Positions 27,388 to 57,581 of a DNA stretch of 64,000 bases are shown in pieces. This DNA comes from Aquimarina agarivorans. Its GTDB lineage: Bacteria; Bacteroidota; Bacteroidia; Flavobacteriales; Flavobacteriaceae. Numbering within the stretch: the first letter of the stretch is position 1; each line of letters begins with the position of its first letter. The stretch lies in the NCBI RefSeq assembly GCF_000218485.1, contig NZ_AFPB01000167.1, positions 1-64,000 of the forward strand, given 5' to 3'. The notes beneath the pieces are model-generated. The model had not been told where the DNA came from. It searched no databases and saw only the letters and a list, made by a program, of their open reading frames with translations. Both the position numbers and the translations under genes were made by a program.

Positions 27388-27747
27388 ATGAAACTCTTTT
27401 TTTTGCCGTTGATCAGTGCGTTTTTTTTATTTAGTTGTAGTGGAGATAGTGAAGATGATTTAAAGGAAACTCCTTCGACAACAGGTCAGGAAGTTAATTT
27501 AATTTTTGAAAAAGATGTAAAACCATTAATAGCGGATAGGTGTTTAAAATGCCATGGTAGTCCAACAATGTTTGGAGCTCCTGCGAGTGCTGTATATGTA
27601 ACTTTTGACCAAGTGAGCGCAAATGCTAATGCTATGTTGGCTAGGATGAGTAATGGATCTATGCCACCTGCATCCGAAGGTATGTTGTCAGCATCATTTG
27701 TGGAAACTTTTAATAAATGGATCGATGATGGGAAATTGGAGGAGTAA
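27388..27747 (+). CDS. Small c-type cytochrome lipoprotein
   Basis: 119 residues. Lipoprotein signal with lipobox LFSC (Cys17). One heme-binding motif CLKCH (52-56), followed by a Met-rich stretch (AMLARMSNGSMPP) that could supply the distal axial ligand, as in cytochrome c domains of the planctomycete type. Attached to the membrane facing the periplasm. The stop overlaps the start of the YceI gene by 20 bases, so translation is probably coupled. Confidence 0.85.
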   Translation: MKLFFLPLISAFFLFSCSGDSEDDLKETPSTTGQEVNLIFEKDVKPLIADRCLKCHGSPTMFGAPASAVYVTFDQVSANANAMLARMSNGSMPPASEGMLSASFVETFNKWIDDGKLEE

Positions 27748-28297
27748 TTTTCTTTTTCTAGGTCTTTTAATGTTGTTTCAAAGCAGTATTTGTTTGGACT
27801 CGGTTTTTGGACAACAAACCTATAAAACTGCAACAGGGATTATCAGTTTTAATGCTGCAAAAACCGCTATTGAACCTATTCAGGCAAAAAATAGTCAGGT
27901 AAAGGTTGCTTTTAGACCTAGTGATGGGGCTTTAGTTGGTTTGTTGAAGGTGTCAGATTTTGTGTTTCCTAACGCGTTAATGCAAGAACATTTTAATGAA
28001 AATTATATGGAAAGTGAACAGTATCCCACGGCAAGTTTTGAAGCCAAAATTGATGATTTGGATAATTTGCTAGCTAACGAAACTAAGGTTAAAGGTGTGT
28101 TTAATATTCACGGGATAAAAAAGGAATTATTTATTCCAATAACATTGATAAAAAAAGGGGAGGGCTTTGAATTAAAATCAAACTTCAAGTTGCTATTGAA
28201 AGATTTTAAAATAAAAGTACCTTCATTGATGTTTTACAAAATTGCGGAGGTTGTTGATGTGGTTTTAAATGCACGGTTGACAAAAGTGGAGCAATAA
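27728..28297 (+). CDS. YceI-family periplasmic protein
   Basis: 189 residues from ATG 27728 (ATG 27725 is the only near alternative). Signal peptide with cleavage near VFGQ (about residue 27), then a lipocalin-like YceI barrel: TGIISFNAAKTAIEPI, FPNALMQEHFNENYMESEQYPTASF and FNIHGIKKELFIPI are classical YceI stretches. YceI proteins bind isoprenoid or other lipids. The frame is open further upstream inside the cytochrome gene, but without a signal sequence. Confidence 0.88.
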   Translation: MGNWRSNFLFLGLLMLFQSSICLDSVFGQQTYKTATGIISFNAAKTAIEPIQAKNSQVKVAFRPSDGALVGLLKVSDFVFPNALMQEHFNENYMESEQYPTASFEAKIDDLDNLLANETKVKGVFNIHGIKKELFIPITLIKKGEGFELKSNFKLLLKDFKIKVPSLMFYKIAEVVDVVLNARLTKVEQ

Positions 28298-42662: not shown

Positions 42663-44558
42663 ATGAAAAAAATTAATAATAAAGTTTTATTGTGTTTAGG
42701 AAGTCTTATTTTAGGATTTTCTACTAACAGTTGTGAAGATATCACATCAGAAAATAACACCACGACAGCCTCTTTCGCAACATTTGAGGAATTAGTACAA
42801 GGAAGATTACCAAGTATTTACGCATCGCTAAGATCAAATGCATTATATAGACAGGGTGGATTATTGGGAACATGGTCTGATGTCGGTGTTGATACGCATA
42901 CGGGAACTCTTTTTCCAGAAGAATACTTGCCTCTTTATCTATATAATTATGCACCAGGAACTTTGTTAATTGGTCAAACTTGGACTGAATTTTATACAGC
43001 AATCAAGCAAATCAATACTTTTTTAGGTCAGATTAGTACTTTTTCAGTTTCTGAGGATGAAAAAAATCCAGTAATAGCTGAAGCTCGGTTTTTAAGAGCA
43101 TTACTTTATTTTGACATGGTTAAAATATGGGGCGATATTCCTTTGGTAATCAGTGAGGATATAACTTTAGCTCAAATACGTGAAGATTCAAGTTTAACAA
43201 ATACAACTGCTGAGGAGGTGTATGTTCAAATCATCAAGGATCTTGAATTTGCTAAAGAGAATGGAAATACTAGAGTTGGTTCAACCGCTGATATAGCTTC
43301 AAAAGAAGCTGCACAAGTTCTTTTGGGTAAAGTTTTTTTACAAATGACAACTACTAAAGAGTATGGCGGAGTAGAAGGTGGAACTAATGAAAATGGAGAC
43401 CCTATGAGTAGACAAGATAGATTTGTTCAGGCGAATGCAGAATTAAAAGAAGTAATGGAGTCTCAAGCATTTCAACTTGAACGCAATTACGCTGATGTTT
43501 TTATTAATGAAAATAATAATGAAGTTATTTTTTCAGTAGGTTATGACGGGCCTAACAGTGATGTTGGTGGTGATTTTGGTGACTTCTTAGGTCAAGGAAA
43601 CTTAAGAGATGGAGGGAGTTTTGGAGCCTACAGAGCTGGTGCTGACTTTGCATTAAGTTATTTGAATGGAGATGTGCTTATTACAGATCAAGCAGGTTCA
43701 GATGTGCCGGAAACAAACATGTTGCCAAAATTAAATAGAGAATTTTTTGATTTTCCAAATAGTAATTTTAGACCAGAAGTATTATTACTTGGAGTAGATA
43801 ATTTTGTATCCGATACTCGTTTTTCTCACAATATCTGGAGAATAGCTCCTACTAATGTAGGGAGAAGACTTAGGGGAGAAGGTTCTTTTACTCTTCAAGA
43901 TGCTTTTAATCAAGAAAATTTAGGGTGGGGAAACTGGTCACCTCTAAAATATATTAAACCTTTACCTAACTCAAGTGCGCCTGGGGATGGTGCTATTGAC
44001 TTTCCTTTTTTACGTTATGCCGATGTATTACTAATGAGAGCAGAAGCTTTAATAGCTTTGAATGATTTGGGGCAAGCTAGGGAGCTTATAAATACAGTCA
44101 TCATGAGGTCTTTAAAAGATAAAGTGTTAAAAACTATTCCTGAAGGTGTGGTTTACATCACTCCTGTTGACAATGAACCAGGAACGCCACAAGCAGATTT
44201 GAATACAGCTATCGAAGAGAATTTGGAGGATGTAGATCCTACAGCGTTTTTGGTGCCAGAAGGTTTGGATGCAGAGGAGTTAATTGACAGATTAGTTATT
44301 GAAAATGCAAAAGAATTAGCATTTGAAGGGAAAAGAAAAGACGATTTAATTAGAATGGGTAGATTGGATAGAATAGTTAATAGTTTTCACGTAGATTCAC
44401 ATCCGGATAGAACCGCACAAAACTTTTTAGGTGTAAAGGCAGGTTTCGATTTAGAATTACATACCCATTGGCCAATACCTCAAGATCAACTTATTTTAAA
44501 TCCAAATCTAAAACAAAATTGTCTTTACGGTACAAATGGTATTGACGGTTGTTTTTAA
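42663..44558 (+). CDS. SusD/RagB-like surface lipoprotein (system B)
   Basis: 631 residues. Lipobox TNSC (Cys24) with EDITSE behind it. SusD-fold features: ARFLRALLYFDMVKIWGDIPLV (about 140-161), FLRYADVLLMRAEALIAL and ENAKELAFEGKRKDDLIRMGRL, with the C-terminal HTHWPIPQDQLILNPNLKQN. Partner of the SusC at 39229. Only modest similarity to the system A SusD. Confidence 0.95.
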   Translation: MKKINNKVLLCLGSLILGFSTNSCEDITSENNTTTASFATFEELVQGRLPSIYASLRSNALYRQGGLLGTWSDVGVDTHTGTLFPEEYLPLYLYNYAPGTLLIGQTWTEFYTAIKQINTFLGQISTFSVSEDEKNPVIAEARFLRALLYFDMVKIWGDIPLVISEDITLAQIREDSSLTNTTAEEVYVQIIKDLEFAKENGNTRVGSTADIASKEAAQVLLGKVFLQMTTTKEYGGVEGGTNENGDPMSRQDRFVQANAELKEVMESQAFQLERNYADVFINENNNEVIFSVGYDGPNSDVGGDFGDFLGQGNLRDGGSFGAYRAGADFALSYLNGDVLITDQAGSDVPETNMLPKLNREFFDFPNSNFRPEVLLLGVDNFVSDTRFSHNIWRIAPTNVGRRLRGEGSFTLQDAFNQENLGWGNWSPLKYIKPLPNSSAPGDGAIDFPFLRYADVLLMRAEALIALNDLGQARELINTVIMRSLKDKVLKTIPEGVVYITPVDNEPGTPQADLNTAIEENLEDVDPTAFLVPEGLDAEELIDRLVIENAKELAFEGKRKDDLIRMGRLDRIVNSFHVDSHPDRTAQNFLGVKAGFDLELHTHWPIPQDQLILNPNLKQNCLYGTNGIDGCF

Positions 44559-44568
44559 AACAAAAAAT

Positions 44569-46266
44569 ATGAAAAAAAATATAAATTATTTGATAGGTTT
44601 TTTAAGCATTATTTTTATGCTTATTACAAGCTGTGAAGAGGCTCCTCTAGATAGAGATACAACTCCTAAAGAGCAAATCTCAAGTATTGTTGTAAAATTG
44701 GTTGATGAACAAAAGGGGGATTCTCAGGATGACTCAGGATTGGCGCCAACTTTTACTACGTTAATTGGAAATAATGTTGAATTATCCTCAACTAGGTCCG
44801 AAGGTGTTGTAAAAAGACTATGGATGTTACCAGATGCGGTAATTTTAAATGGTGGAGTTGAATCTGTTAATTCTGAAACAGAAGGAATTATTTTAGTAGA
44901 AACATTGGAGTTACTGTCATTGTCTTTTAGTAGACAAAATATGCCAAACCTAAACACAGAGTCAAGAGGTTTTTTAGTTACTTTGACTGAAACATTAGCA
45001 GACGGGAGTGTTGAAATATCTTCAACTTCAATTCAGGTTAGGGATAGTGTAAAAGCAGTAATAAATTCATTTTCACAGGCAACTGTAAATGCTCCTATTA
45101 CATTTAGACCAGGTACTATTGAAGAATTAGGTTTGTCTACGGCAGACTTGAATGGAGAAAATCAAACAGTTTTTTCTTGGGACTTTGGAAGTGGTAGAGT
45201 AGTAGATTCTGAAGGGAATTTAACAGACATAACTACTTTTGCAATCACGAACAACCCTAATCAAACTGTAGATGTAATATACTCGGACGTAACGCCTGAG
45301 GGTGAAGAAGGGGAATTAGTCACCTTGACAGTGACGAGAAATTTTCCGTTAGAAAGCATTGCTGAAACTACAAAAAGAATTGTCGTGATTGCAGGCCTAG
45401 TGCCTAGTAGAGGCGACGGGAAAGATCCAATTAAGTTGAATGCAAGTGGTTCAGAAATAGTAGTAGGATATCCTGACGATATAGCTAACATTATGGATAT
45501 AGATGCGTCTGACTTTGAATTATCAATAAATACAAGCGAAATTGTTGATGATGTTCTAAGAGATGATATTGATAATATTACAGTAACAAGCGTTGCGCTT
45601 AATGATGATAATTCAAAAGAAATGATATTGTCTTTATCTTCTGATATTCCAGCTATTTTGATGGATAATGTCACGCTCTCTTTTACATCTGAAGATTTAA
45701 AAGGTGAATCAAATGCATTATTAAGTAATTTTGAAAATTCTGTTGTAGCCCAAACTGCTGAAAATATTTTAGGAAATATAAGTCTTGTAAGCTTCGAAGA
45801 TAGCGCAAGATGGGCAGCTTCAGATCCTGCTTTTGGTTTTTCCCCTCCACCTCCTACTGAGGAATTAATGTTTTCTTCTGATTTGAGTTTAATTGGAGCT
45901 AATAGTTTTCGATTCAATACGAATTCAGCTCCAAGAGGTTTAGGTGCTACTTTATTAGACGGAGAAGGTCTAATGTTGGAAAATTCTTTAGACTATGAAG
46001 TTTCATTTTGGGTTTATGTTGTTAGCGCGGAGCCCGGTTCGAGTGTAGACTTTTTTCTAATCAATGATTTCGATCAATCTGCTGGATTGGGGATAGGTGA
46101 AGTTGAAAGAAATAAATGGATTAAAGTGAGTAATACATTTACAATTCCTACTGATTTTGTAAGACCAATGGTTAGAGTTGTTGGTGATGGAAGTACGCCA
46201 AATTCTGGTAATGCAGAAGTATTTGTGGATGCTTTAGACATCAGATTAGTAGACGACGGAAGGTAA
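44569..46266 (+). CDS. Surface glycan-binding-type lipoprotein (system B)
   Basis: 565 residues from ATG 44569; the frame opens 11 codons earlier inside susD but only the later Met has a lipoprotein signal (LITSC, Cys22). A PKD-like stretch (about 150-300; FSWDFGSGRVVDSEGN) and a C-terminal jelly-roll domain (about 395-565; YEVSFWVYVVSAEPGSSVDF, NKWIKVSNTF, VFVDALDI) that looks like a carbohydrate-binding module. Same position and plan as the 501-residue lipoprotein of system A. Last gene of operon B, 10 bases after susD. Confidence 0.8.
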   Translation: MKKNINYLIGFLSIIFMLITSCEEAPLDRDTTPKEQISSIVVKLVDEQKGDSQDDSGLAPTFTTLIGNNVELSSTRSEGVVKRLWMLPDAVILNGGVESVNSETEGIILVETLELLSLSFSRQNMPNLNTESRGFLVTLTETLADGSVEISSTSIQVRDSVKAVINSFSQATVNAPITFRPGTIEELGLSTADLNGENQTVFSWDFGSGRVVDSEGNLTDITTFAITNNPNQTVDVIYSDVTPEGEEGELVTLTVTRNFPLESIAETTKRIVVIAGLVPSRGDGKDPIKLNASGSEIVVGYPDDIANIMDIDASDFELSINTSEIVDDVLRDDIDNITVTSVALNDDNSKEMILSLSSDIPAILMDNVTLSFTSEDLKGESNALLSNFENSVVAQTAENILGNISLVSFEDSARWAASDPAFGFSPPPPTEELMFSSDLSLIGANSFRFNTNSAPRGLGATLLDGEGLMLENSLDYEVSFWVYVVSAEPGSSVDFFLINDFDQSAGLGIGEVERNKWIKVSNTFTIPTDFVRPMVRVVGDGSTPNSGNAEVFVDALDIRLVDDGR

Positions 46267-46290
46267 AAAAAACTAGTACCTACATACATC

Positions 46291-46326
46291 AAAAAAGCGC
46301 AAAACCTCAGGTTTTGTGCTTTTTTG
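46291..46326 (+). terminator. Terminator of SusCD operon B
   Basis: Stem AAAAAAGCGCAAAACC/GGTTTTGTGCTTTTTT (one G-T pair) with a three-base loop and T-run, 25 bases after the stop. Confidence 0.88.
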
Positions 46327-46347
46327 TTATAAAGCATTTTCATACTA

Positions 46348-46375
46348 TTTGCAATTTAGTATCTTTACTTGCAAA
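46348..46375 (+). promoter_or_regulatory. Inverted repeat flanking the -7 box of the LacI-type gene
   Basis: TTTGCAA (46348-46354) and TTGCAAA (46369-46375) are inverted copies 14 bases apart; between them TATCTTTA (46360-46367) resembles a -7 element. An operator overlapping the promoter of a LacI-family gene suggests autoregulation. Confidence 0.45.
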
Positions 46376-46393
46376 TCAAAAGTGATCCCCGCA

Positions 46394-47401
46394 ATGCGAA
46401 AAAAAGTTACGCTAAAACAGTTAGCACAGGAATTAGGTTTGTCTATCTCTACAATTTCAAAATCTTTGAAGAATGATCCTGAAATTAGTCAAGCCACAAT
46501 TGACCGCGTTAAAAAGTTAGCGAAGGAACATAATTACAAGCCTAATGCATTGGCAGTTAGCTTAAAAAGCAGTAAAACCAGAAATATAGGTGTTGTAATT
46601 CCTGATATAATTAATAACTTTTTTGCCAAAGTATTACTTGGTATTGAAAACGAAGCTTCCAAAAATAATTACAAGATTATAACAGTAATTACTAACGAAT
46701 CTTATGAAAAAGAGGTAGAGTATTTAGACATGCTGTCATACAATGGTGTCGACGGTTTTATATTAGCAGTGGCTCAGGAAACGCAGTCAAAAGGTTTGGT
46801 AGAACATTTTAACGAAATTTTAAAGGATGACATTCCCATTGTGATGTTTGATAGGGTGTCTGATGAAGTGTATTGCGACAAAGTTGTTGTTGATGACAAT
46901 AAAGCAGCAGGAAATGCAGTAAATGTATTATTGGATCAAGGTTGTAAAAATATTGGAGTGGTATCTACTATTCATAAATTGAGTGTTGGTAAAGAGCGTA
47001 TGCAAGGCGTAAAGGAAGCACTTGAAGAAAAAGGAATGGAATTGAGCTATCTTAAACTTAGGCAAAATGCTGATTATGATGAGGAAATAGCCAAATTTTT
47101 AAAGTCCAACCAACTTGACGGCGTTATTGGCGCGGATGAAATAGCAGCGGTATGCACCTTAAATGCCGCTAATAAATCAGGCTTAAAAATTCCAGATGAA
47201 GTTTCAGTAATTGGCTTTACTAATGGAATGTTAGCAAAATATTCGTACCCTGGGTTAACAACTGTTTCGCAGCATGCAAAGCGTATGGGTAAAACGGCAG
47301 CAAAAATTTTAATAGATAAGCTTGAATTACGTGCGGATAGGTATTTGCCAGATACAAAATACATTAATACAAGTATTGTAAAAAGAGGGTCAACTAAATA
47401 G
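46394..47401 (+). CDS. LacI-family transcriptional regulator
   Basis: 335 residues from ATG 46394; the frame is open 26 codons earlier but that part overlaps the terminator. N-terminal LacI HTH with hinge (TLKQLAQELGLSISTISKSL, ISQATIDRVKKLAKEHNYKPN) and a periplasmic-binding-protein-like sensor domain (IGVVIPDIINNFF to VIGFTNGMLAKYSYPGLTTV). Likely responds to a sugar from the neighbouring SusCD systems. SulP follows 38 bases later, perhaps in the same transcript. Confidence 0.92.
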   Translation: MRKKVTLKQLAQELGLSISTISKSLKNDPEISQATIDRVKKLAKEHNYKPNALAVSLKSSKTRNIGVVIPDIINNFFAKVLLGIENEASKNNYKIITVITNESYEKEVEYLDMLSYNGVDGFILAVAQETQSKGLVEHFNEILKDDIPIVMFDRVSDEVYCDKVVVDDNKAAGNAVNVLLDQGCKNIGVVSTIHKLSVGKERMQGVKEALEEKGMELSYLKLRQNADYDEEIAKFLKSNQLDGVIGADEIAAVCTLNAANKSGLKIPDEVSVIGFTNGMLAKYSYPGLTTVSQHAKRMGKTAAKILIDKLELRADRYLPDTKYINTSIVKRGSTK

Positions 47402-47439: not shown

Positions 47440-49179
47440 TTGCTGGAAACGCTAAAAAACTATTCCAAAGATTTAGCAAAGAATGATGCGGTGGCGGGTT
47501 TTACCGTAGGTGTTATTTTAATACCTCAAGCTATAGCTTATGCGTTTTTGGCTGGCATACCACCTATATATGGACTGTATTCTTCATTAATTCCACTTTT
47601 GATTTATGCTTTTTTAGGTACTTCCAGGCATTTAAGTATTGGACCAGTTGCAGTAACATCAATTTTGTTAATGACTGGTATAAGCAGTTTAGCAGCTCCT
47701 TTTACGAATCATTTTGTAGCATTGGTGTTGTTAACAGGGTTGTTGGTTGGAATACTTCAAATATTAATGGGAGCCTTACGCATGGGGTTTTTAGTCAGTG
47801 TTATTGCGCAACCAGTAATTTCAGGCTTTATTTCTGCGGCAGCGTTTATAATCATTGCATCGCAATTAAATGCAGTATTAGGAATGCAAATTCCAAGTGG
47901 AATGTCCACATTTTCAGCAGTGATTTATGTACTGAAAAATAATTCAAACGCGCACCTTCCAACACTTCTGATTTCTGCAATTTCATTGTTTTTTCTAATT
48001 GTAATGCGTCAAATAAAAAAAAGCTTTCCGACAGCAATAGTGTTGTTGGTACTTTTTGTGGCTATTAGTTATTATCAAAATTTTTCGGCTAAGGGTATTG
48101 AAATTATAGGAAAAATTCCAGATGGTTTGCCGTCATTTTATTGGCCAAAAATGGATTGGATAACTTTAAAGCAATTAATGCCAACCGTTTTTATTTTAAC
48201 GGTTATTGGATATATCGGGAGTATTGGTATTGCGAAATCCTTTCAAATGAAGCACAGGAACTACACCGTAAATCCCAATCAGGAATTAATTGCACTAGGT
48301 TTTTCAAAAGTTATTGGTACTTTTTTTCAAGGGAATTTAGCTTCAGGCAGTTACAGTAGGTCCGCAATAAATGAAGATGCAGGTGCTAAAACACAAGTTT
48401 CAACAATAATAACAGCCTTTATTATATTAATGGCGTTACTTTTTTTAACGCCCTTGTTATTTTACTTGCCTAAAGCTGTATTGGCATCTATTATATTGGT
48501 TTCAGTATTTAGTTTAATTAAGGTAAAAGAAGCAAAACGTTATTTTAAGGTGCGTTTTGACGATTTTGTAATCATGCTAGTCACATTTATTGTAACTTTA
48601 GGATATTCTATTGAAGTAGGTATTTTAGTTGGTGTTTTGCTGTCATTTATTTTTTTACAATACCGAAGTGCTAAACCTCACATAGCAGAGTTGGTTAAAA
48701 TTCCTGAGACGAACTATTACAGAAATTTGAACCGTTTTCCTAATGGAATCAGCAATCCCAATTATTTAATTATTCGTTTTGATGATCAGTTGTATTTCGG
48801 AAACGCGGATTACTTTAAAGAATCTATTTACCGATTGATGGAAAAGCGCAGTGTCACACCAAAATACATTATACTACACGCAACAAATATTCATGCTATT
48901 GACAGTTCGGGTTTACATACATTGGAAGATTTATACCGAGAGTTGACCGAAAAGAATATTGAAGTATTATTTAGTGGAATGATTGGCCCTGTCCGCGATA
49001 TTTTAACACGTTCTGGCTTTATTGAAACACTTGGAGCGGCAAGGCAATTCATGAACATCAATGATACTATTCAATATATTGATGAAAGTAATGATACTGT
49101 AACCAACGACAAAGCATTGACTATGCAATTTAATGAACGTAAATTTAGCCTGCTTAACTGGCTAAAAAAGAAGTTTTAG
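47440..49179 (+). CDS. SulP-family inorganic anion transporter with STAS domain
   Basis: 579 residues. About 12 membrane segments from residue 17 on; the SulP signature region AGIPPIYGLYSSLIP (about 38-52) and GNLASGSYSRSAINEDAGAKTQ are clear. The cytoplasmic C-terminal STAS domain (about 430-545) has IIRFDDQLYFGNADYF and ATNIHAIDSSGLHTLEDL. Transports sulfate, bicarbonate or another anion; if the local glycan is sulfated, sulfate handling would make sense, but no sulfatase is in the window. Start is TTG at 47440; no ATG lies nearby in frame. Confidence 0.9.
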   Translation: MLETLKNYSKDLAKNDAVAGFTVGVILIPQAIAYAFLAGIPPIYGLYSSLIPLLIYAFLGTSRHLSIGPVAVTSILLMTGISSLAAPFTNHFVALVLLTGLLVGILQILMGALRMGFLVSVIAQPVISGFISAAAFIIIASQLNAVLGMQIPSGMSTFSAVIYVLKNNSNAHLPTLLISAISLFFLIVMRQIKKSFPTAIVLLVLFVAISYYQNFSAKGIEIIGKIPDGLPSFYWPKMDWITLKQLMPTVFILTVIGYIGSIGIAKSFQMKHRNYTVNPNQELIALGFSKVIGTFFQGNLASGSYSRSAINEDAGAKTQVSTIITAFIILMALLFLTPLLFYLPKAVLASIILVSVFSLIKVKEAKRYFKVRFDDFVIMLVTFIVTLGYSIEVGILVGVLLSFIFLQYRSAKPHIAELVKIPETNYYRNLNRFPNGISNPNYLIIRFDDQLYFGNADYFKESIYRLMEKRSVTPKYIILHATNIHAIDSSGLHTLEDLYRELTEKNIEVLFSGMIGPVRDILTRSGFIETLGAARQFMNINDTIQYIDESNDTVTNDKALTMQFNERKFSLLNWLKKKF

Positions 49180-49767: not shown

Positions 49768-52136
49768 ATGGAAATTCACACATTGGAGTTAGAGCCGATA
49801 TCCGCTGACTTGGGGGTGTCAAACAGTAATCAGGAGCCTGTAACTGATCTTTTAAACAATTTTAAATTATCAGATTTATTTGACGATTTTAATAGTAGTA
49901 ATATAGATGATTTCATTTTTGATGATGTTAGCATATCAAAATCGTCGGTAAATGGAGTAAATAGCCTGCTTTTTTTAGGAAGCTTACGCATGGATGGTGC
50001 ATTGGCTATTTTTGAGGACTATTTAGGTAGTGAGTCTTCAATAGTAGTGGCAGCTACCATAAATAGCGGAGGTGCATCACTTTCCGAAAAGGTAAAACCA
50101 ACGAACGCTATTTTTACGTCTGTAGTTGCGTTTCATAAAGAAATTTTTAAAGGAGTAACACTGGTTGAAACGTCATTAGAATTGGATATTTCAAAAAATG
50201 AAGGGGGTTGGTCAATTGTACCTAGACTTACAGGAGTTTTTGATGTGAATCTTCTTACAGATAATGATGAAGGTTACATGAGGTTTAAACTCACGGAAAA
50301 GAATAATGCACTTATGATTACTGCAAATGCTAAAAATTTAAATGGTGCATTTGGTATAGATAAACTTACGTTGGATAGCGTAACTGTTCAAGGGCAAGTA
50401 GGTGCGGTAAATTCGTTGAATCTTTCTTCTGAATTCATTATAGGTGAAACCGCCCTTAACTTTAACGGTATATTAACCCCTGATAATATGAGTATTGTTG
50501 CCAGTGCCACTAGTTTTGGGCTAAATGACCTTGCTAACCTTTTTAATGAAATATCAGGAACAGGGCTGATGCTTTTGCTTCACATGATATGATGATTGGG
50601 GATATTGAAGTGGTATCAGGATTATCATTAATGACAGCAGTAACAGCTCATGATCATACCATGCAAGCAATAGCTCATATTTCAGATCAGGGTGTTGTTT
50701 TTGATAGCGATTTAGGTAATTTTAAGGCAGGCCCCATTGAGGTAAAAAATACAGATCTTGATTTTCAAATTTTTAATAAAACAATTCAAAAACCTGCAAA
50801 ATTTGAAATTTCGGGAAAGACTAAAATAAAGGAGCTAGTGTAGGGGTATTAAGTGACTCAAAATCGCTAGATTTTCACCTTTCGGGAGAAATGCAGAATG
50901 ACATTACTGCCTACCTAAAAAATGAAGTGGCAGCTAAAATAAACGTTGCTCTTAAAGTTACCGAAGAAGAAATTGAAGCTGCACAAGCTAAGGTAGACGA
51001 TGCACAAAAGGCATTTGAAGCAAAATTTGAACCTGCACAAAAAGCGTTGACTAAAGCACAGAAAAATGCGGATAAGCATTTGGAAAAACTGACTGAAGAT
51101 TTAAATAAAGTACAGGCAGATTACCGTAAAGAATTTGCTAAAGCAGAAAAGGCTGTTGAAAAAGCGAAGGGGGCTTATGATAACGTATTTACTGAAGCGA
51201 AAGAAGCATTAGACCAGGCTGAAAAAGTATATAATTCAGGGGTTAAAGCTGCTCAAAAACAGTTGGATAAAACAGAAAAAATATATAAGCAGGGTGTTAA
51301 AAAAAGCGCAAAAAAAGGTAGACGATGCTGAAAAGAAATACAAAAACGGTATAAGTGGTGCTCAAAATGCGGTTAAAAATGCTAGTAAAAAGGTAAACGT
51401 TTTAAACCGTAAAATAAGCAACGTAAAAAAGAGAATAAAAAAGCTAAAACGGTACGAAAAGCCTTTAGCAGGTTTGTATACTGCTTTAGGAACTGCAAAA
51501 GGAGTATTGGAAGCTGCCAATATTGTTTTGGAAGGAATTAAATTTGGCGTAGAATATACGGCTTTTGAAGCAGCACAAGCAGTGTTGCATGTAGCAAAAA
51601 CAGGCACCAATTTTATAGCTTTTGATGGAGCTAGAAGAGCACTGGAAGCGGTTCGTTTTGGAAGTGAATATACCGTTTGGCAAGGTGCCGAAAAAGCATT
51701 AAGCTTAGTAAGAATTACAGGAGAAAAAGCAATAGCAATTGCTAGGGCGGCTATTGATAATATTGGTCAGTCAGCAGCATACATTGCATTGCAAGTAGCT
51801 AAAGAAGCATTAAGGGCTATTGAAAATGGAACTGAGGCGATTGCCTTTGAAACTGCAAAAGCCGTTTTAGAAGCAGCCAAATTTGGAGCTCAAGGAGTAT
51901 TAAAATTAGGCGCACTTATAGCTACGCATGCGGGGAATCTTATTGATATTAGGAGCTTTAAGTTTTCTGCAAGTTTGAGTGAAATTAAAAAAGGGAACCT
52001 TTTTGATGCTGAACTGGATATTTCTTTATTAGGTGAAGACCATCATTTCATTATTGACTTTGACGTAACGCATGTTGCAGACTTTGTAGAAGCGCTGTTC
52101 AAAAAATCTTTTAATGAACTAAAAGCGATGGTTTAA
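49768..52136 (+). pseudogene. Gene for an alanine-rich amphipathic-repeat protein, broken by three single-base frameshifts
   Basis: Four consecutive reading frames join into one protein of about 789 aa if one base is restored near 50563 (GGG), one near 50829 (AAA) and one A removed from the A7 run near 51300. Start chosen: ATG 49768 (MEIHTLELEPIS); no signal peptide. Parts in order: N-terminal beta-rich region (about 1-275), a second beta-rich stretch (to about 370), a long highly charged helix of Lys/Glu/Ala heptads (about 375-525; EAAQAKVDDAQKAFEAKFEP), an Ala-rich tract of about seven units of roughly 19 residues (about 565-710; VEYTAFEAAQAVLHVAKTG, TNFIAFDGARRALEAVRFG, TEAIAFETAKAVLEAAKFG), and a short beta C-terminus. 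I do not recognise the family. The amphipathic repeats recall lipid-binding apolipoprotein-like helices, which is only an analogy. Confidence 0.75.
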
Positions 52137-52607: not shown

Positions 52608-55184
52608 ATGCACAAAATTAAATTAACAGCATTTGGACTACTTTGCTGTTTACAAGCCGTAGTAGCAAAAGATATTTATGTTTCAAAATCGGGAAATGAT
52701 AATAATCCGGGTACCGAAGCACAACCTTATAAAACCATTACTAAAGCTGCCAATATTGCAGTTGCGGGTGATGTTGTTATAATTTCTGAAGGAACTTACG
52801 AAGAATTGCTGAGCCCTGCCAGATCAGGGACGGCAGGTAATCCAATAGTTTTTAGAGGAAAGCCGGGTGACAAAGTAATTATTACTGCTATGCAGGCGGT
52901 AAATAATTGGACGAAGGATCAAGGAAATATTTATAAAGCTACCGTGGACTGGGATTTGGGTCAGGATAATATGGCATTACACAACGACAAGTTGATGGAT
53001 TTGGCCAGGTGGCCTAACAACGTCCCACAAAATGTATTTGAAAGAGATTATTTACCAGCATGTAACCGAGGTAAAGATGGAGGAGGAAATACATGGATGA
53101 ATTACGATGGAAGTCAAAGTAACGGTCATGCTAAAAGCATTCCGCATGCAGGTAAATGGGAAAATGGAGGTTCGTTACATTTTTATGGAGGTGCAGGATT
53201 CCTTGCTTGGACTGATTTTGTTACTAAATCATCGTCAAACAAAATTGAATTTAAGTTAGAAAGAGGTCAAAACTGGATCCGTTTAAGGCATAACCCTGGT
53301 TATACAGGGCATGGAATAAAAAAAGGTGAATTTTTTCTTCAGGGAATTAAAGAAGCTTTAGATTATCAAAACGAATGGTTTTTTGACAAAAGCAATAATA
53401 CCTTATTTGTACAAATTGAAGGTGGAGGTGCACCTGCACAAAACAGTGTGCGTTTTAGAAGAAGAACGCAAGCAATTCGTTTAAATAAAAATTTCATCCA
53501 CGTTGAAAATTTAGCAGTATTTGGTGGATCTATTGACATTAGCGGGAATGATAATAAGCTGTATCAAGTTTCCAGCTTTTATGGAAATCATACCTTAGGA
53601 GTTATTAGAGGATTTGATTCAGGAAGACAAAGTGTTTTAATGAACGGAAAACGTAATGTTGTTGAAAAGTGCGAAATTGCTTGGGGTGGTGGAAATGGAG
53701 TTTATGACAGGGGTGATGATAACCAACTATTAAATTCATACGTGCATGATTTTAATTACCTTGGGAATTATGATTGTGTATTAAACACACGTGGTGCCAA
53801 AAGAGGTAAGTACCGTAATAATACATTGACAAGAGCAGGAAAAGATGTAATTCAAGCTTATGTTGATGGGGGTGAGTACGCCTATAATGATATTAGTTTT
53901 AATAATTTTGTAGCCGATGATGGCGGGCTTTTATATACTACAAATGTAAGAAACCAAAAATCATCAATACACCATAATACCTTTCATGATTCACAGTCAA
54001 GAAAAGGCAGATTCAAAGGAGCAGGTATCTATTTAGATAATGATTCCAAAAACTGGGATGTTCATCACAATATTGTTTGGAATACGAAATGGACTAATAT
54101 CCAGATTAATTGGGATGGTATTAACCTAAATATCTTTAATAATACCTTTGCTAAAGGTTCAGCAACAATGGGAGCTTGGCATAAAGCGGGTACCATGTTC
54201 AGTAATGTAAAAGTTTGGAATAATATTACAGATAAGTTTTCCAGTGATCAAGGTGGAAATCAAGAAAGTGAAGGCACATGGGAGCCGCAGTCTGATAAAC
54301 AAAATAATTTGGTAGATAGGTCTTCCTTTGTGGACTGGGAAAATAATAACTACCAATTAAAGGCAGGAGCTGATGCGGTTGATCACGGAAGGGTGATTGA
54401 TGGATTTACGGATGGGTTTCAAGGCGCTAGCCCTGATGCAGGAGCCTATGAATTTGGTGTTGCTCCATTTAAAACAGGGATAGATTGGGATAAAGATTTA
54501 GGTCCATCTGGTAACGGATGTTATAATTTGCCTGGTGAATCTTGTAACGGAACTACACCTCCGCCAACAACACCAGTAGCACCAGCTGAACCTACAGTTG
54601 ATGATACTATTTCATTTAAAGAACAAGCTGATGAATTGACTCAACAAACAACGTATAGTTTTACTTTTAAATACACTGCAAATGAGGAAAGAGATATTAA
54701 TTTAATTTTAAAAAATCCATCGGATCAGGAGGTAACTTCAGTAACGCAAACAGTGCGGGCATCCGAGGATGGCTTTGTAGACTTAACTTTAAATCTTACC
54801 GAATTGCCAGCAATTGGTGATAGGTATAAAATAGTGTTAAGTATTCGACCAGTAGGTAAGGATTACAAAGAAAATATTCAGAAGGAACTGTACTTTTTTA
54901 ATATTGTTGAAAACACATTGTCAACTAATGATTTTTTAACAAATAATAGTGACCAAAATATAATTATATATCCTAATCCAACTACGGGTAGTGTGCATTT
55001 TGAACTTGAAGATGATTTAGAGCAGGTAATTATTTATGATATGAATGGTAAACTTGTACGTCGTTTGACGTCAAATGAACTGGAAATTGAAAAAGTAGAT
55101 CTTAAATTATTGGAAAGAGGTCCCTATTTTATAAAAATAAAAACTAAAAATAGACTACTAATTAAAAAAATTATTAAGCAATAA
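52608..55184 (+). CDS. Secreted beta-helix carbohydrate-active protein with Ig-like and T9SS domains
   Basis: 858 residues. Signal peptide (cleavage near QAVVA, residue 20), beta-helix (about 21-620) opening with KDIYVSKSGND, then a linker rich in Pro/Thr (about 645-660), an Ig-like domain (about 661-770) and a T9SS sorting domain (about 783-858; IIIYPNPTTGSVHF). Paralogue of the 855-residue protein at 22619: shared blocks include MGAWHKAGTMFSNV, WEPQSDKQNNLVD and GPSGNGCYN, while the CBM6 of the first is replaced here by the Ig-like domain. Presumably an extracellular polysaccharide-cleaving enzyme; catalytic family not assigned. Confidence 0.82.
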   Translation: MHKIKLTAFGLLCCLQAVVAKDIYVSKSGNDNNPGTEAQPYKTITKAANIAVAGDVVIISEGTYEELLSPARSGTAGNPIVFRGKPGDKVIITAMQAVNNWTKDQGNIYKATVDWDLGQDNMALHNDKLMDLARWPNNVPQNVFERDYLPACNRGKDGGGNTWMNYDGSQSNGHAKSIPHAGKWENGGSLHFYGGAGFLAWTDFVTKSSSNKIEFKLERGQNWIRLRHNPGYTGHGIKKGEFFLQGIKEALDYQNEWFFDKSNNTLFVQIEGGGAPAQNSVRFRRRTQAIRLNKNFIHVENLAVFGGSIDISGNDNKLYQVSSFYGNHTLGVIRGFDSGRQSVLMNGKRNVVEKCEIAWGGGNGVYDRGDDNQLLNSYVHDFNYLGNYDCVLNTRGAKRGKYRNNTLTRAGKDVIQAYVDGGEYAYNDISFNNFVADDGGLLYTTNVRNQKSSIHHNTFHDSQSRKGRFKGAGIYLDNDSKNWDVHHNIVWNTKWTNIQINWDGINLNIFNNTFAKGSATMGAWHKAGTMFSNVKVWNNITDKFSSDQGGNQESEGTWEPQSDKQNNLVDRSSFVDWENNNYQLKAGADAVDHGRVIDGFTDGFQGASPDAGAYEFGVAPFKTGIDWDKDLGPSGNGCYNLPGESCNGTTPPPTTPVAPAEPTVDDTISFKEQADELTQQTTYSFTFKYTANEERDINLILKNPSDQEVTSVTQTVRASEDGFVDLTLNLTELPAIGDRYKIVLSIRPVGKDYKENIQKELYFFNIVENTLSTNDFLTNNSDQNIIIYPNPTTGSVHFELEDDLEQVIIYDMNGKLVRRLTSNELEIEKVDLKLLERGPYFIKIKTKNRLLIKKIIKQ

Positions 55185-55205
55185 ATGTTTTTAACTAGTA
55201 AGTTT

Positions 55206-55246
55206 AAAAAGCCAAGCTTCAGTAAAATGAAACTTGGCTTTTTTTT
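55206..55246 (+). terminator. Terminator after the second beta-helix gene
   Basis: Stem AAAAAGCCAAGCTTCA/TGAAACTTGGCTTTTT (one C-A mismatch) with T8, 22 bases after the stop. The remaining 280 bases to 55528 show no gene. Confidence 0.88.
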
Positions 55247-55527
55247 GTAAAAAATATTCTGTTTTAATATTTTTATAACGTAACTACATGTATATTAAAT
55301 ATATAAATTTTAGATGTGCTTTTAAATAATAGTTTCATAACTATAACAATTAAACCAATGACTACTGATTTTATTTATTGAGAAAGAAATATAGGAGCGG
55401 AATACAAAAATGCGATAAGTTTTATCAATTACTTATTTAATAAATTCATGTTTAAGGTGATGGTTGGTTGTCTTATTTAGTATAAATATGTTAAAATTAT
55501 ATTATATTAGGATATAAATATCCTCTA

Positions 55528-57581
55528 ATGTATAAACAGTTCTTTCGGTTACTTACGTTGCTTGTATTATTAAATTCTTGTGCCAAGGATTCAATATTGA
55601 CTGATCAGGAAAAAAATGGCTAAAAGAGCATTCTGGTATTACTACTTCAGTTTTTGGATATTATCCACCATATCAATTTTTAAATGATTTTGGAGAGGTG
55701 GAAGGCCTATTTATTGATTATTTAGAGCTTATCGAGAAAAAAATCGATTATAAATTTAAAAAGCATAAATATACGTACTGGAATAATGTAATTGAAGATA
55801 TCAAAGTTGGTAGGATTGATATGATTTTAGAAATCCAAGAAACTAAAGAAAGAGCTCCTTACCTCAATTTTTATGCGCAGTTATTTGAATCACAGCACGT
55901 CATTGTTACTAAGGAAGATTCAGATATTTATACTATAGCAGATTTAACCAATAAAACAATTGTAACTCCTAAAGGTTATGCCATTAGAGAAACGCTTGAA
56001 GAAGAATTCCCTGGCATTAAAATAGAAATTGAAGAAAATGAAGTGGAATGCCTTAGGGCACTTAGCGCCGGTAAATACGATGCTTATGTAGGAGCAAAAG
56101 CGGCTATTAATTACTTTATACAAGCAAAAAACTTTAAAGACTTGGTCATTATTACCGAAACTCCGTATTATTATTCTCCTGGCCTAGGTGTTCGGAAGGA
56201 TAATGAAATGTTGAATAACATTATCGAAAAGGCAACCGAAAGCATCAGTTTTAGCGAGCAAAACGAACTTTTTGACCGTTGGTTGCTAAAAAAGGTAAAA
56301 CCATTTTATTTAAAATTTAGTTTTTGGTTATTTATTTTGACAATCATGTTCATCATGTTGTTTGTCAATATGTTTTTAAATAGATATTTAAAATACAAAA
56401 TTAAAGAACGTACGCACGCGTTGCAATTAGCAAAAGAGGCTGCAGGGCAAAGTAGTTTACTTAAAACAAGTTTTATTCATAATATTTCCCACGAAATAAG
56501 AACGCCATTAAATAGTATTTTAGGATTTTCCGAATTAATAAAAAAAGAAGGTAATTTATCGGCAGATCAGCAAAATCATATGGAAAAAGTGATCCACAGT
56601 GGGAAACAGTTGATTTATATAGTTGACGATGTTTTGGAAATTTCAAGCCTTCAAACTAAAGAAGTAACTACTCATGCGGAGGAAGTTAATTTGATTGATA
56701 TTTTTAAAAAAATAGTCTATTATTTTAAACCCAAAGCAGATGATAAAAAAATTAAACTAAGTTTTTATAAACAAGCTAATCTAAAAGAAGACTTAGTAAA
56801 AGTAGATAAACAACGTTTGATTATTATAGTGAATAAACTTACTGATAATGCAATAAAATTTACTGCTCAAGGGGAAGTGTCTATTACTTATGAAAAAGAC
56901 CCTCAATATATTATTGTCACTATCGCAGATACTGGAATTGGTATTAAAAGCGATCAAAAAGAACTCATATTTGACAGTTTTTTGCAGCTCGAAAACGATA
57001 TTTCCAGAACGTTTAGTGGCTTAGGTTTGGGGCTTTCAATAGCAAAAGAAAACACTTTGGTTTTAGGAGGAAAAATTAGTTTTGAATCTAAAGAAAATAT
57101 AGGGCCAACTTTTACGGTAAAATTGCCCTATCAAGCCGTTTCGTCACAAGCACAAGTAGATATTTGGTTTGAAGCTGATAGTAACACTTTAAATTATACG
57201 GTGTTGGTTGCCGAAGATGTTAAAATTAATTTTTTATTGGTAAACTCAATTCTTAAAAAGTTTATACCATTTAATTTTACGGTTTTGCATGCTGTCAATG
57301 GTAAAGAGGCGGTAGATTTTGCTCAAAGAAATCCCAACATTGATCTAGTTATTATGGATATTCGAATGCCTGTAATGGACGGTTACGAAGCAACACGTAT
57401 TATCAAGAAAATGCGTCCTGAACTTACAATATTAGCACATACTGCCTATTCTTCCGATAAGGATATTGAAGCCGCCTTAAATGCAGGTTGTGCTGAAGTT
57501 ATTTCTAAACCAATTGAAATAGATTTTTTTAAAACTACAGTTAAAAAATATTTATTACCCGAAAGTGTTAACCTCCAGTAG
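55528..57581 (+). CDS. Solute-binding-domain hybrid histidine kinase, frameshifted near the N-terminus
   Basis: The main frame (55698-57581, 627 codons from the first ATG) has a periplasmic SBP_bac_3-type binding domain (to about 200), one membrane segment (about 204-228), HisKA with His265 (NISHEIRTPL), HATPase (NKLTDNAIKFT, DTGIGI, GLGLGLSIAK) and a C-terminal receiver with Asp554 (LVIMDIRMPVMDGYEA). No signal peptide is in that frame. Upstream, ATG 55528 starts a lipoprotein-like leader (FRLLTLLVLLNSCAKDS) that stops at 55621; adding one A to the A7 run at 55610-55616 joins it to the main frame through WLKEHSGITTSVFGYYPPYQF, giving 684 aa. Alone, the main frame would lack export of its sensor. 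No output DNA-binding domain; partner regulator unknown. Confidence 0.82.

What the first reader, a model, noticed from the sequence alone, without database searches (positions are those of the whole stretch)
49768..52136. Unrecognised protein with about 19-residue alanine-rich amphipathic repeats behind a long charged helix
After joining the frames, the product has no signal peptide, a beta-rich front, a 150-residue Lys/Glu/Ala helix, and six to eight repeats of about 16-20 residues with the pattern xEYxAFxxAxxALxxAKxG. Each unit would be one helix with a hydrophobic face and a Gly/aromatic turn. I know no standard bacterial domain with this build; the shape would suit membrane or lipid-droplet binding, a helical pore, or a scaffold. 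It sits beside the glycan region but shares no feature with it. The observation is direct; all function statements are guesses.
Basis: partly seen in the sequence, partly recalled or inferred. Interest (0 to 1): 0.65.

Follow-up and report, generated by a model that had tools for sequence, protein, structure and literature searches.

The report
Broken copy of undescribed protein
The stretch is most likely a recently broken gene, with shifted frames and about a third of its coding length gone, from a rare, undescribed family of large bacterial proteins found in distant phyla, so this copy probably makes no working product but its intact relatives deserve study.

Summary
The window matches model positions 10-256, 259-357, 758-921 and 870-1197 of the Aquimarina profile; positions 358-757, including the part most shared with remote relatives, were not found in its genome. 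Frame changes plus an out-of-frame gap make it a likely pseudogene. It keeps 129 of 156 columns invariant in five intact copies, so decay looks recent. The 19-residue repeat is genuine (0 of 5000 shuffles reach it), but the units tested are not clearly amphipathic; the intact model suggests a coiled-coil stalk. No Pfam, NCBIfam or PADLOC model covers the body. Relatives are patchy: 2 of 65 in the Aquimarina genus set, 3 of 157 in the Bacilli family, only the window's own in 395 of its phylum. Stepwise searches reach plasmids of Mycetohabitans, Priestia, Herpetosiphon and Paenibacillus, some beside enzymes. Best guess for intact members, inferred only: a stalked carrier for changeable enzymatic partners.

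The parts
49768..50592 (+). Piece 1 of the broken gene: beta-rich front (from the ATG at 49768); 49846-50574 matches model positions 10-256 of the Aquimarina profile
   Evidence: E 1.4e-86; 53% identity to L016 protein residues 6-256
50541..50837 (+). Piece 2, another frame: matches model positions 259-357
   Evidence: E 1.6e-28; the stretch as reported has 2 stops; 53% identity, residues 262-357
50828..50843 (+). Junction of an out-of-frame internal gap: model positions 358-757 (about 400 residues) are absent here and were not found elsewhere in the genome
50828..51319 (+). Piece 3, third frame: GEMQND motif and coiled-coil helix, model positions 758-921
   Evidence: E 2.9e-52; 52% identity, residues 759-916
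51294..52136 (+). Piece 4: end of the coiled coil, Ala-rich 19-residue repeats, C-terminal part; model positions 870-1197 (the profile match starts at 51219 in this frame)
   Evidence: E 2.0e-82; 47% identity to L016 residues 850-1198
51471..51923 (+). Tract of 19-residue Ala-rich units; one whole tandem unit fewer than in the five intact full-length copies (3 then 2, against 4 then 2, by the consensus scan)
51924..52133 (+). C-terminal segment, by eye a beta hairpin plus a last helix, alignable in all five intact full-length copies

Best explanation
49768-52136 is a decayed copy (pseudogene) of an undescribed, scattered protein family; decay looks recent. Shown: collinearity with intact single genes, frame breaks, and a missing block of about 400 residues. 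In intact members a beta-rich part of about 780 residues is followed by a long helix and a run of helices broken at 18-residue steps, which may fold back on the long helix as a stalk (model only), and a short C-terminal segment. How intact members work is inferred (about 0.3): body and stalk act as a soluble carrier or scaffold for an enzymatic partner that changes between lineages (a nuclease-like domain fused at the N-terminus in two Bacilli copies; genes for an Exo_endo_phos protein, an S8 peptidase or a DUF3238 protein beside others), as in a conflict protein. The confidence below is for the pseudogene and family statement.
For: All four frames match, in order, single intact genes in 3 Aquimarina and 2 Bacilli genomes. 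Model positions 358-757 gave no match in the window's genome. Intact copies show constraint (crude counts: dN 0.146 against dS 1.69, dN 0.309 against dS 2.00). Within the kept pieces the window has 129 of 156 columns that are invariant in all five intact copies. Helices of the L016 model: 784-952, then seven helices between 957 and 1134; block pLDDT from 801 to 1110 mostly 68-84 with dips to 51-61. Structural look-alikes of that part include coiled-coil hairpins and stalks (PrgA Z 16.1 at rmsd 16.4, a chemoreceptor, the MukB elbow). Partners.
Against: No reads were available, so single frame changes could be sequencing slips. The beta part could not be modelled (pLDDT mostly under 40). Look-alikes of long helices are common and the PrgA rmsd is large. 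The Aquimarina copies, closest to the window, have no fused enzyme, and their neighbours were not scanned for families. The nuclease-like reading rests on Endonuclea_NS_2 at E 0.033 in 1 of 2 proteins, below cut-off, and on recall; no PDB sequence match. PADLOC gave only weak matches in coiled-coil stretches of 5 of 6 proteins, best E 3.2e-5, and none over the beta part. No immunity gene was looked for, and no secretion signal was seen.
Confidence: 0.9

Rival explanations
1. Lipid carrier: the beta part is a hydrophobic groove of the AsmA/VPS13 or TULIP sort and the helices cap or hold lipid, so intact members move or store lipid.
For: Low-confidence models show antiparallel strands of about 8-10 residues with short turns; weak sub-cut-off hits of helical parts to Phasin (E 0.00075) and, in the Paenibacillus plasmid protein, Apolipoprotein (E 0.0054).
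Against: No AsmA, TamB, Chorein or TULIP model among the rows shown; the 19-residue units are not clearly amphipathic; no membrane span by simple hydropathy; such helical hits are usual for coiled coils.
Confidence: 0.15
2. Tc-like pore-former: the helical part is a long pore-forming hairpin as in Tc toxin A subunits.
For: Among the 50 VIA-align rows shown, five are Tc toxin A chains or a holotoxin chain, model ranges within 802-1122, Z 9.2-10.8.
Against: By the tool's own note Z under about 13 for long helices may mean only a common arrangement; several unrelated coiled coils score higher; no Tc model among the Pfam and NCBIfam rows shown.
Confidence: 0.07
3. The gene is intact in the cell and the frame changes and gap are assembly faults.
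For: Lesions are few and kept residues look constrained; no reads were available to exclude it.
Against: About 1.2 kb is missing and gave no match on any of the 182 contigs of a genome rated 99.66% complete.
Confidence: 0.06
4. A shortened but working variant: the remaining pieces are made as separate small proteins.
For: The pieces are long open frames with possible start codons and well conserved.
Against: The gap is out of frame and takes out most of the block shared with remote relatives; none of the relatives that I read is split this way.
Confidence: 0.05

Closest known systems
   Same: Same order of parts; the window pieces are 41-53% identical to the Aquimarina copies; Aquimarina and Bacilli copies share 37-41%
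   Different: Intact single frames, about 400 residues more in the middle, one more tandem 19-residue unit; the Bacilli ones carry about 500 extra N-terminal residues
Hypothetical proteins on plasmids of Mycetohabitans rhizoxinica, Priestia megaterium, Herpetosiphon aurantiacus (Haur_5003) and Paenibacillus amylolyticus
   Same: The Mycetohabitans protein matches L016 residues 476-752 at 23% (tblastn E 1e-3; hhalign 91.9%); the other three were reached through it and share with it a beta block and a helical C-terminal half
   Different: Direct similarity to Aquimarina is weak for Herpetosiphon and Paenibacillus and near none for Priestia; the helical half differs in sequence
Polymorphic toxin systems
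   Same: A common body with partners that change between lineages
   Different: No immunity gene or trafficking domain identified; the enzyme-like domain is N-terminal or in a neighbouring gene
PrgA of Enterococcus (6z9l)
   Same: Best-scoring structural match of the helical part (Z 16.1, rmsd 16.4)
   Different: No PDB-sequence match to it was seen, and the beta part was not comparable

Membership tests
Undescribed family of the Aquimarina 1200-aa proteins | Collinear match along the length | tested here: met
   four pieces in order, apart from the missing positions 358-757
Undescribed family of the Aquimarina 1200-aa proteins | Central beta block shared with remote relatives | tested here: not met
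   no match to positions 358-757 in the window genome; read as a loss, since the flanks on both sides are kept
Any Pfam or NCBIfam family | Score above the curated cut-off over a beta part or the repeat tract | tested here: not met
   Window pieces; intact relatives: Pfam, NCBIfam (L051 and L052 not scanned with NCBIfam); some tables show the best 25 rows only
Polymorphic toxin system | Variable enzymatic domain or partner on a common body | tested here: inconclusive
   different partners beside three plasmid copies and a weak nuclease-like fusion in two Bacilli copies; Aquimarina neighbours not scanned
Polymorphic toxin system | Cognate immunity gene next to the toxin | not tested
   No neighbour was tested as an immunity protein
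AsmA-like / repeating beta-groove or TULIP lipid carriers | Beta-groove or tubular fold | tested here: inconclusive
   beta part not modelled with confidence
Phasin, perilipin or apolipoprotein type lipid-surface helices | Amphipathic helices with one hydrophobic face | tested here: not met
   in 0 of 7 window units is the moment reached by fewer than 5% of shuffles (lowest 87 of 1000); one scale and one angle only
Tc toxin A subunit | Pore-forming helical hairpin fold | tested here: inconclusive
   Z 9.2-10.8 rows, in the range the tool calls common for long helices

The most novel reading that the evidence does not exclude
The intact relatives are an unrecognised class of modular conflict proteins: a beta-rich body with a helical stalk that carries exchangeable enzymes (nuclease-like, protease, others) and has moved between Bacteroidota, Bacillota, Chloroflexota and Burkholderiaceae, partly on plasmids; the window shows a lineage that has just lost it.
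Probability: 0.22. Interest if true: 0.75.

Novelty: new variant of a known kind. Interest (0 to 1): 0.42.

Why it matters
The window itself looks like a lost gene. It points, however, to a protein of about 1200 residues for which the family libraries searched here hold no model, that is under constraint in intact copies, shared at 37-41% identity between Aquimarina and a Bacilli family, and rare in both. Such a pattern would fit mobile conflict genes, and intact copies are now in hand for structure work. The novelty grade is a compromise: the family is undescribed in these libraries, but whether its way of working is new cannot be told before its beta part is solved.

Tried and rejected
Searches that gave nothing or that I cut down. 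Scans by exact short words: 99 stretches in genome contigs and 22 in viral contigs, none a relative. Window pieces: own copy plus one match at query 3-52 only, dropped as coiled coil, in 397 genomes of the family; own copy alone in 395 of the phylum. Profile A1 in 395 of the phylum: 4 genomes, own plus 3 within model positions 827-941, dropped. Class Bacilli: 6 of 299, 4 dropped because they cover only positions from 747 on. Family of G999: 3 of 197 with the G999 protein. Family of G1224: 6 of 157, 3 dropped as positions 834-979 only. These two family sets were chosen because they hold a positive genome and they overlap, so they are no unbiased rates. Genus of G1224: 1 of 51, the known copy. 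Six genomes reached through chance loci: 0. Plasmids: none with window pieces, 1 record with L016, 4 with the Mycetohabitans protein, itself included, 1 with the G999 protein, none with L051. Phage records: none with window piece 1, L016 or L051. Viral contigs: 71 stretches, no relative; 4 stretches, judged unrelated by eye; none. The pattern gave 17 stretches, 14 dropped by eye.

Structure: the whole L016 protein with 3 sequences gave a poor beta part (mean pLDDT 37.6), a 171-residue cut also (36.7). In the 50 Foldseek rows shown of each library (of 737 and 561) TM-scores are at most 0.36 and 0.38. AsmA or TULIP folds are not in the rows shown; that is no proof of absence. Same-genus genomes: in 14 kb around the sulfate permease match in each of two, none of the other nine window proteins or pieces tried matched, so no empty site was shown. 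A second suspected frame break at 27388-28297 was not borne out by reading the two frames. Ten other window frames were scanned with Pfam, 7 with a match; I did not test the other genes of the window for breaks. PADLOC: weak coiled-coil rows only. Papers: four searches; I saw listings and beginnings of abstracts, no full text; none of those listed was seen to describe this family; the search for four identifiers of the Herpetosiphon and Mycetohabitans genes found 0 papers.

It is one family inside the class of a Kroppenstedtia genome (Bacilli).

Full report
What is there. The + strand holds four frames at 49768-50592, 50589-50843, 50891-51331 and 51294-52136. No piece reaches a curated cut-off in Pfam or NCBIfam; the weak rows are mostly coiled-coil models (PHROGs, which has no cut-offs), and the repeat piece has no PDB sequence match better than E 0.095. 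The 19-residue period in 51471-51923 is genuine: lag-19 score 0.74, reached by 0 of 5000 shuffles, also when hydrophobic, Gly/Pro and other positions are kept (tract ends chosen by eye).

Finding intact relatives. Ordinary searches with window pieces found no relative outside the genome (one coiled-coil match dropped). A degenerate DNA pattern for the motif at 50885-50926 (1 match in the window, none in 100 shuffles) gave 17 stretches in genome contigs, of which 3, all Aquimarina, continue the similarity (14 dropped by eye). Two show complete genes of 1199 and 1202 aa, the third one of 1198 aa once extended. They are 60-78% identical to each other.

The window copy is broken. A profile of the three Aquimarina proteins gives four matches in the window genome: 49846-50574 (model positions 10-256), 50541-50837 (259-357), 50828-51319 (758-921) and 51219-52133 (870-1197). 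tblastn with each Aquimarina protein shows the same layout, in all three + frames. About 400 residues are absent, and no match to them was found on the 182 contigs of a genome rated 99.66% complete. One tandem 19-residue unit is also missing. Decay looks recent: of 156 columns in the kept pieces that are invariant in all five intact copies the window has 129 (83%). The leave-one-out figures for the intact copies, over columns invariant in the other four, are 156 of 165, 156 of 165, 156 of 186, 156 of 180 and 156 of 203 (95, 95, 84, 87 and 77%). The window is thus within the range of intact members, though below the two closest sisters.

Intact members are constrained and scattered. Crude dN/dS pairs among Aquimarina are 0.146/1.69, 0.309/2.00 and 0.313/3.37 (dS near saturation). 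A third genome of that set, G999, has an 887-aa relative without the 19-residue units. Frequency: 2 of 65 genomes of the Aquimarina genus set (the genome of L016 was not held), only the window's own in 395 of its phylum after dropping 3 coiled-coil rows, 2 of 299 Bacilli after dropping 4 helical-only rows, 3 of 157 in the family set after dropping 3 (a set chosen around a positive genome). Remote relatives lie on plasmids: Mycetohabitans directly, and Priestia, Herpetosiphon and Paenibacillus through it. What they share with Aquimarina is chiefly within residues 435-784, most of which the window lost; for Priestia no direct similarity of note was seen.

Shape. The model of the intact L016 protein from three sequences is useless for the beta part but fair for the helices: one of residues 784-952, then seven up to 1134, of 18 residues (four of them) or 26 to 37. 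VIA-align puts this part on coiled-coil hairpins and stalks, best PrgA with Z 16.1 but rmsd 16.4, and on many other long helices; the fold-back is therefore a suggestion. The seven window units tested have no helical moment clearly above shuffles. There is no clear membrane span or signal peptide by simple hydropathy in the window pieces or six of the relatives. Together this speaks against lipid-droplet or membrane-surface binding, without excluding it.

Partners. The N-terminal part of the two long Bacilli proteins has a conserved WLH..SFG..NNLVLGT pattern that resembles His-Me finger nucleases; this resemblance is recalled and weakly backed (Endonuclea_NS_2 E 0.033 in 1 of 2, below cut-off; no convincing PDB match). 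In Herpetosiphon the gene follows, by 29 bases, one with an Exo_endo_phos domain (E 2e-8, above cut-off). In Paenibacillus amylolyticus it heads a run with a 482-aa protein and an S8 peptidase. In Mycetohabitans it follows a DUF3238 gene and a gene with an AAA match. In Priestia the next gene is annotated with a TaqI-like specificity domain, a restriction type. Peptidoglycan-type domains lie within some kilobases of three plasmid copies (GH108, YkuD, PG_binding_1), not in the same run of genes. The Aquimarina copies, the closest, have no fused enzyme, and I scanned no Aquimarina neighbour. This is why the carrier reading gets only about 0.3. PADLOC gave weak rows in coiled-coil stretches only, best E 3.2e-5 to a LeoBC model, and does not file it as a defence protein.

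Literature. Four searches; I saw listings and abstract beginnings only. PMC6791001 (bacterial lipid-transfer homologues) and PMC3482391 (polymorphic toxin systems) served as leads for rivals, not as tests.

Noticed in passing
window 47440-49179: Sulfate permease (SulP with STAS domain) upstream, 52-54% identical to copies in two same-genus genomes, where none of the other window proteins tried lies beside it.
   Followed up: partly
window 42663-47401: Glycan-use region: SusD-type protein at 42663-44558 and a LacI-type regulator at 46316-47401.
   Followed up: no
window 52608-57581: Protein with a Por sorting tail and weak beta-helix matches, followed by a hybrid histidine kinase with a solute-binding domain.
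   Followed up: no
L030 8126-9574: 482-aa protein beside the Paenibacillus amylolyticus relative, with helical ends and an inner part that looks like a YWTD-type propeller (recalled; no Pfam match above cut-off).
   Followed up: partly
L039 4978-5721: 247-aa protein overlapping the end of a relative in genome G1014; looks TULIP-like by eye (recalled), no Pfam match.
   Followed up: partly
L038 10868-11476: 202-aa protein next to the G999 relative with a motif like L,D-transpeptidases by eye (recalled); no Pfam match.
   Followed up: partly
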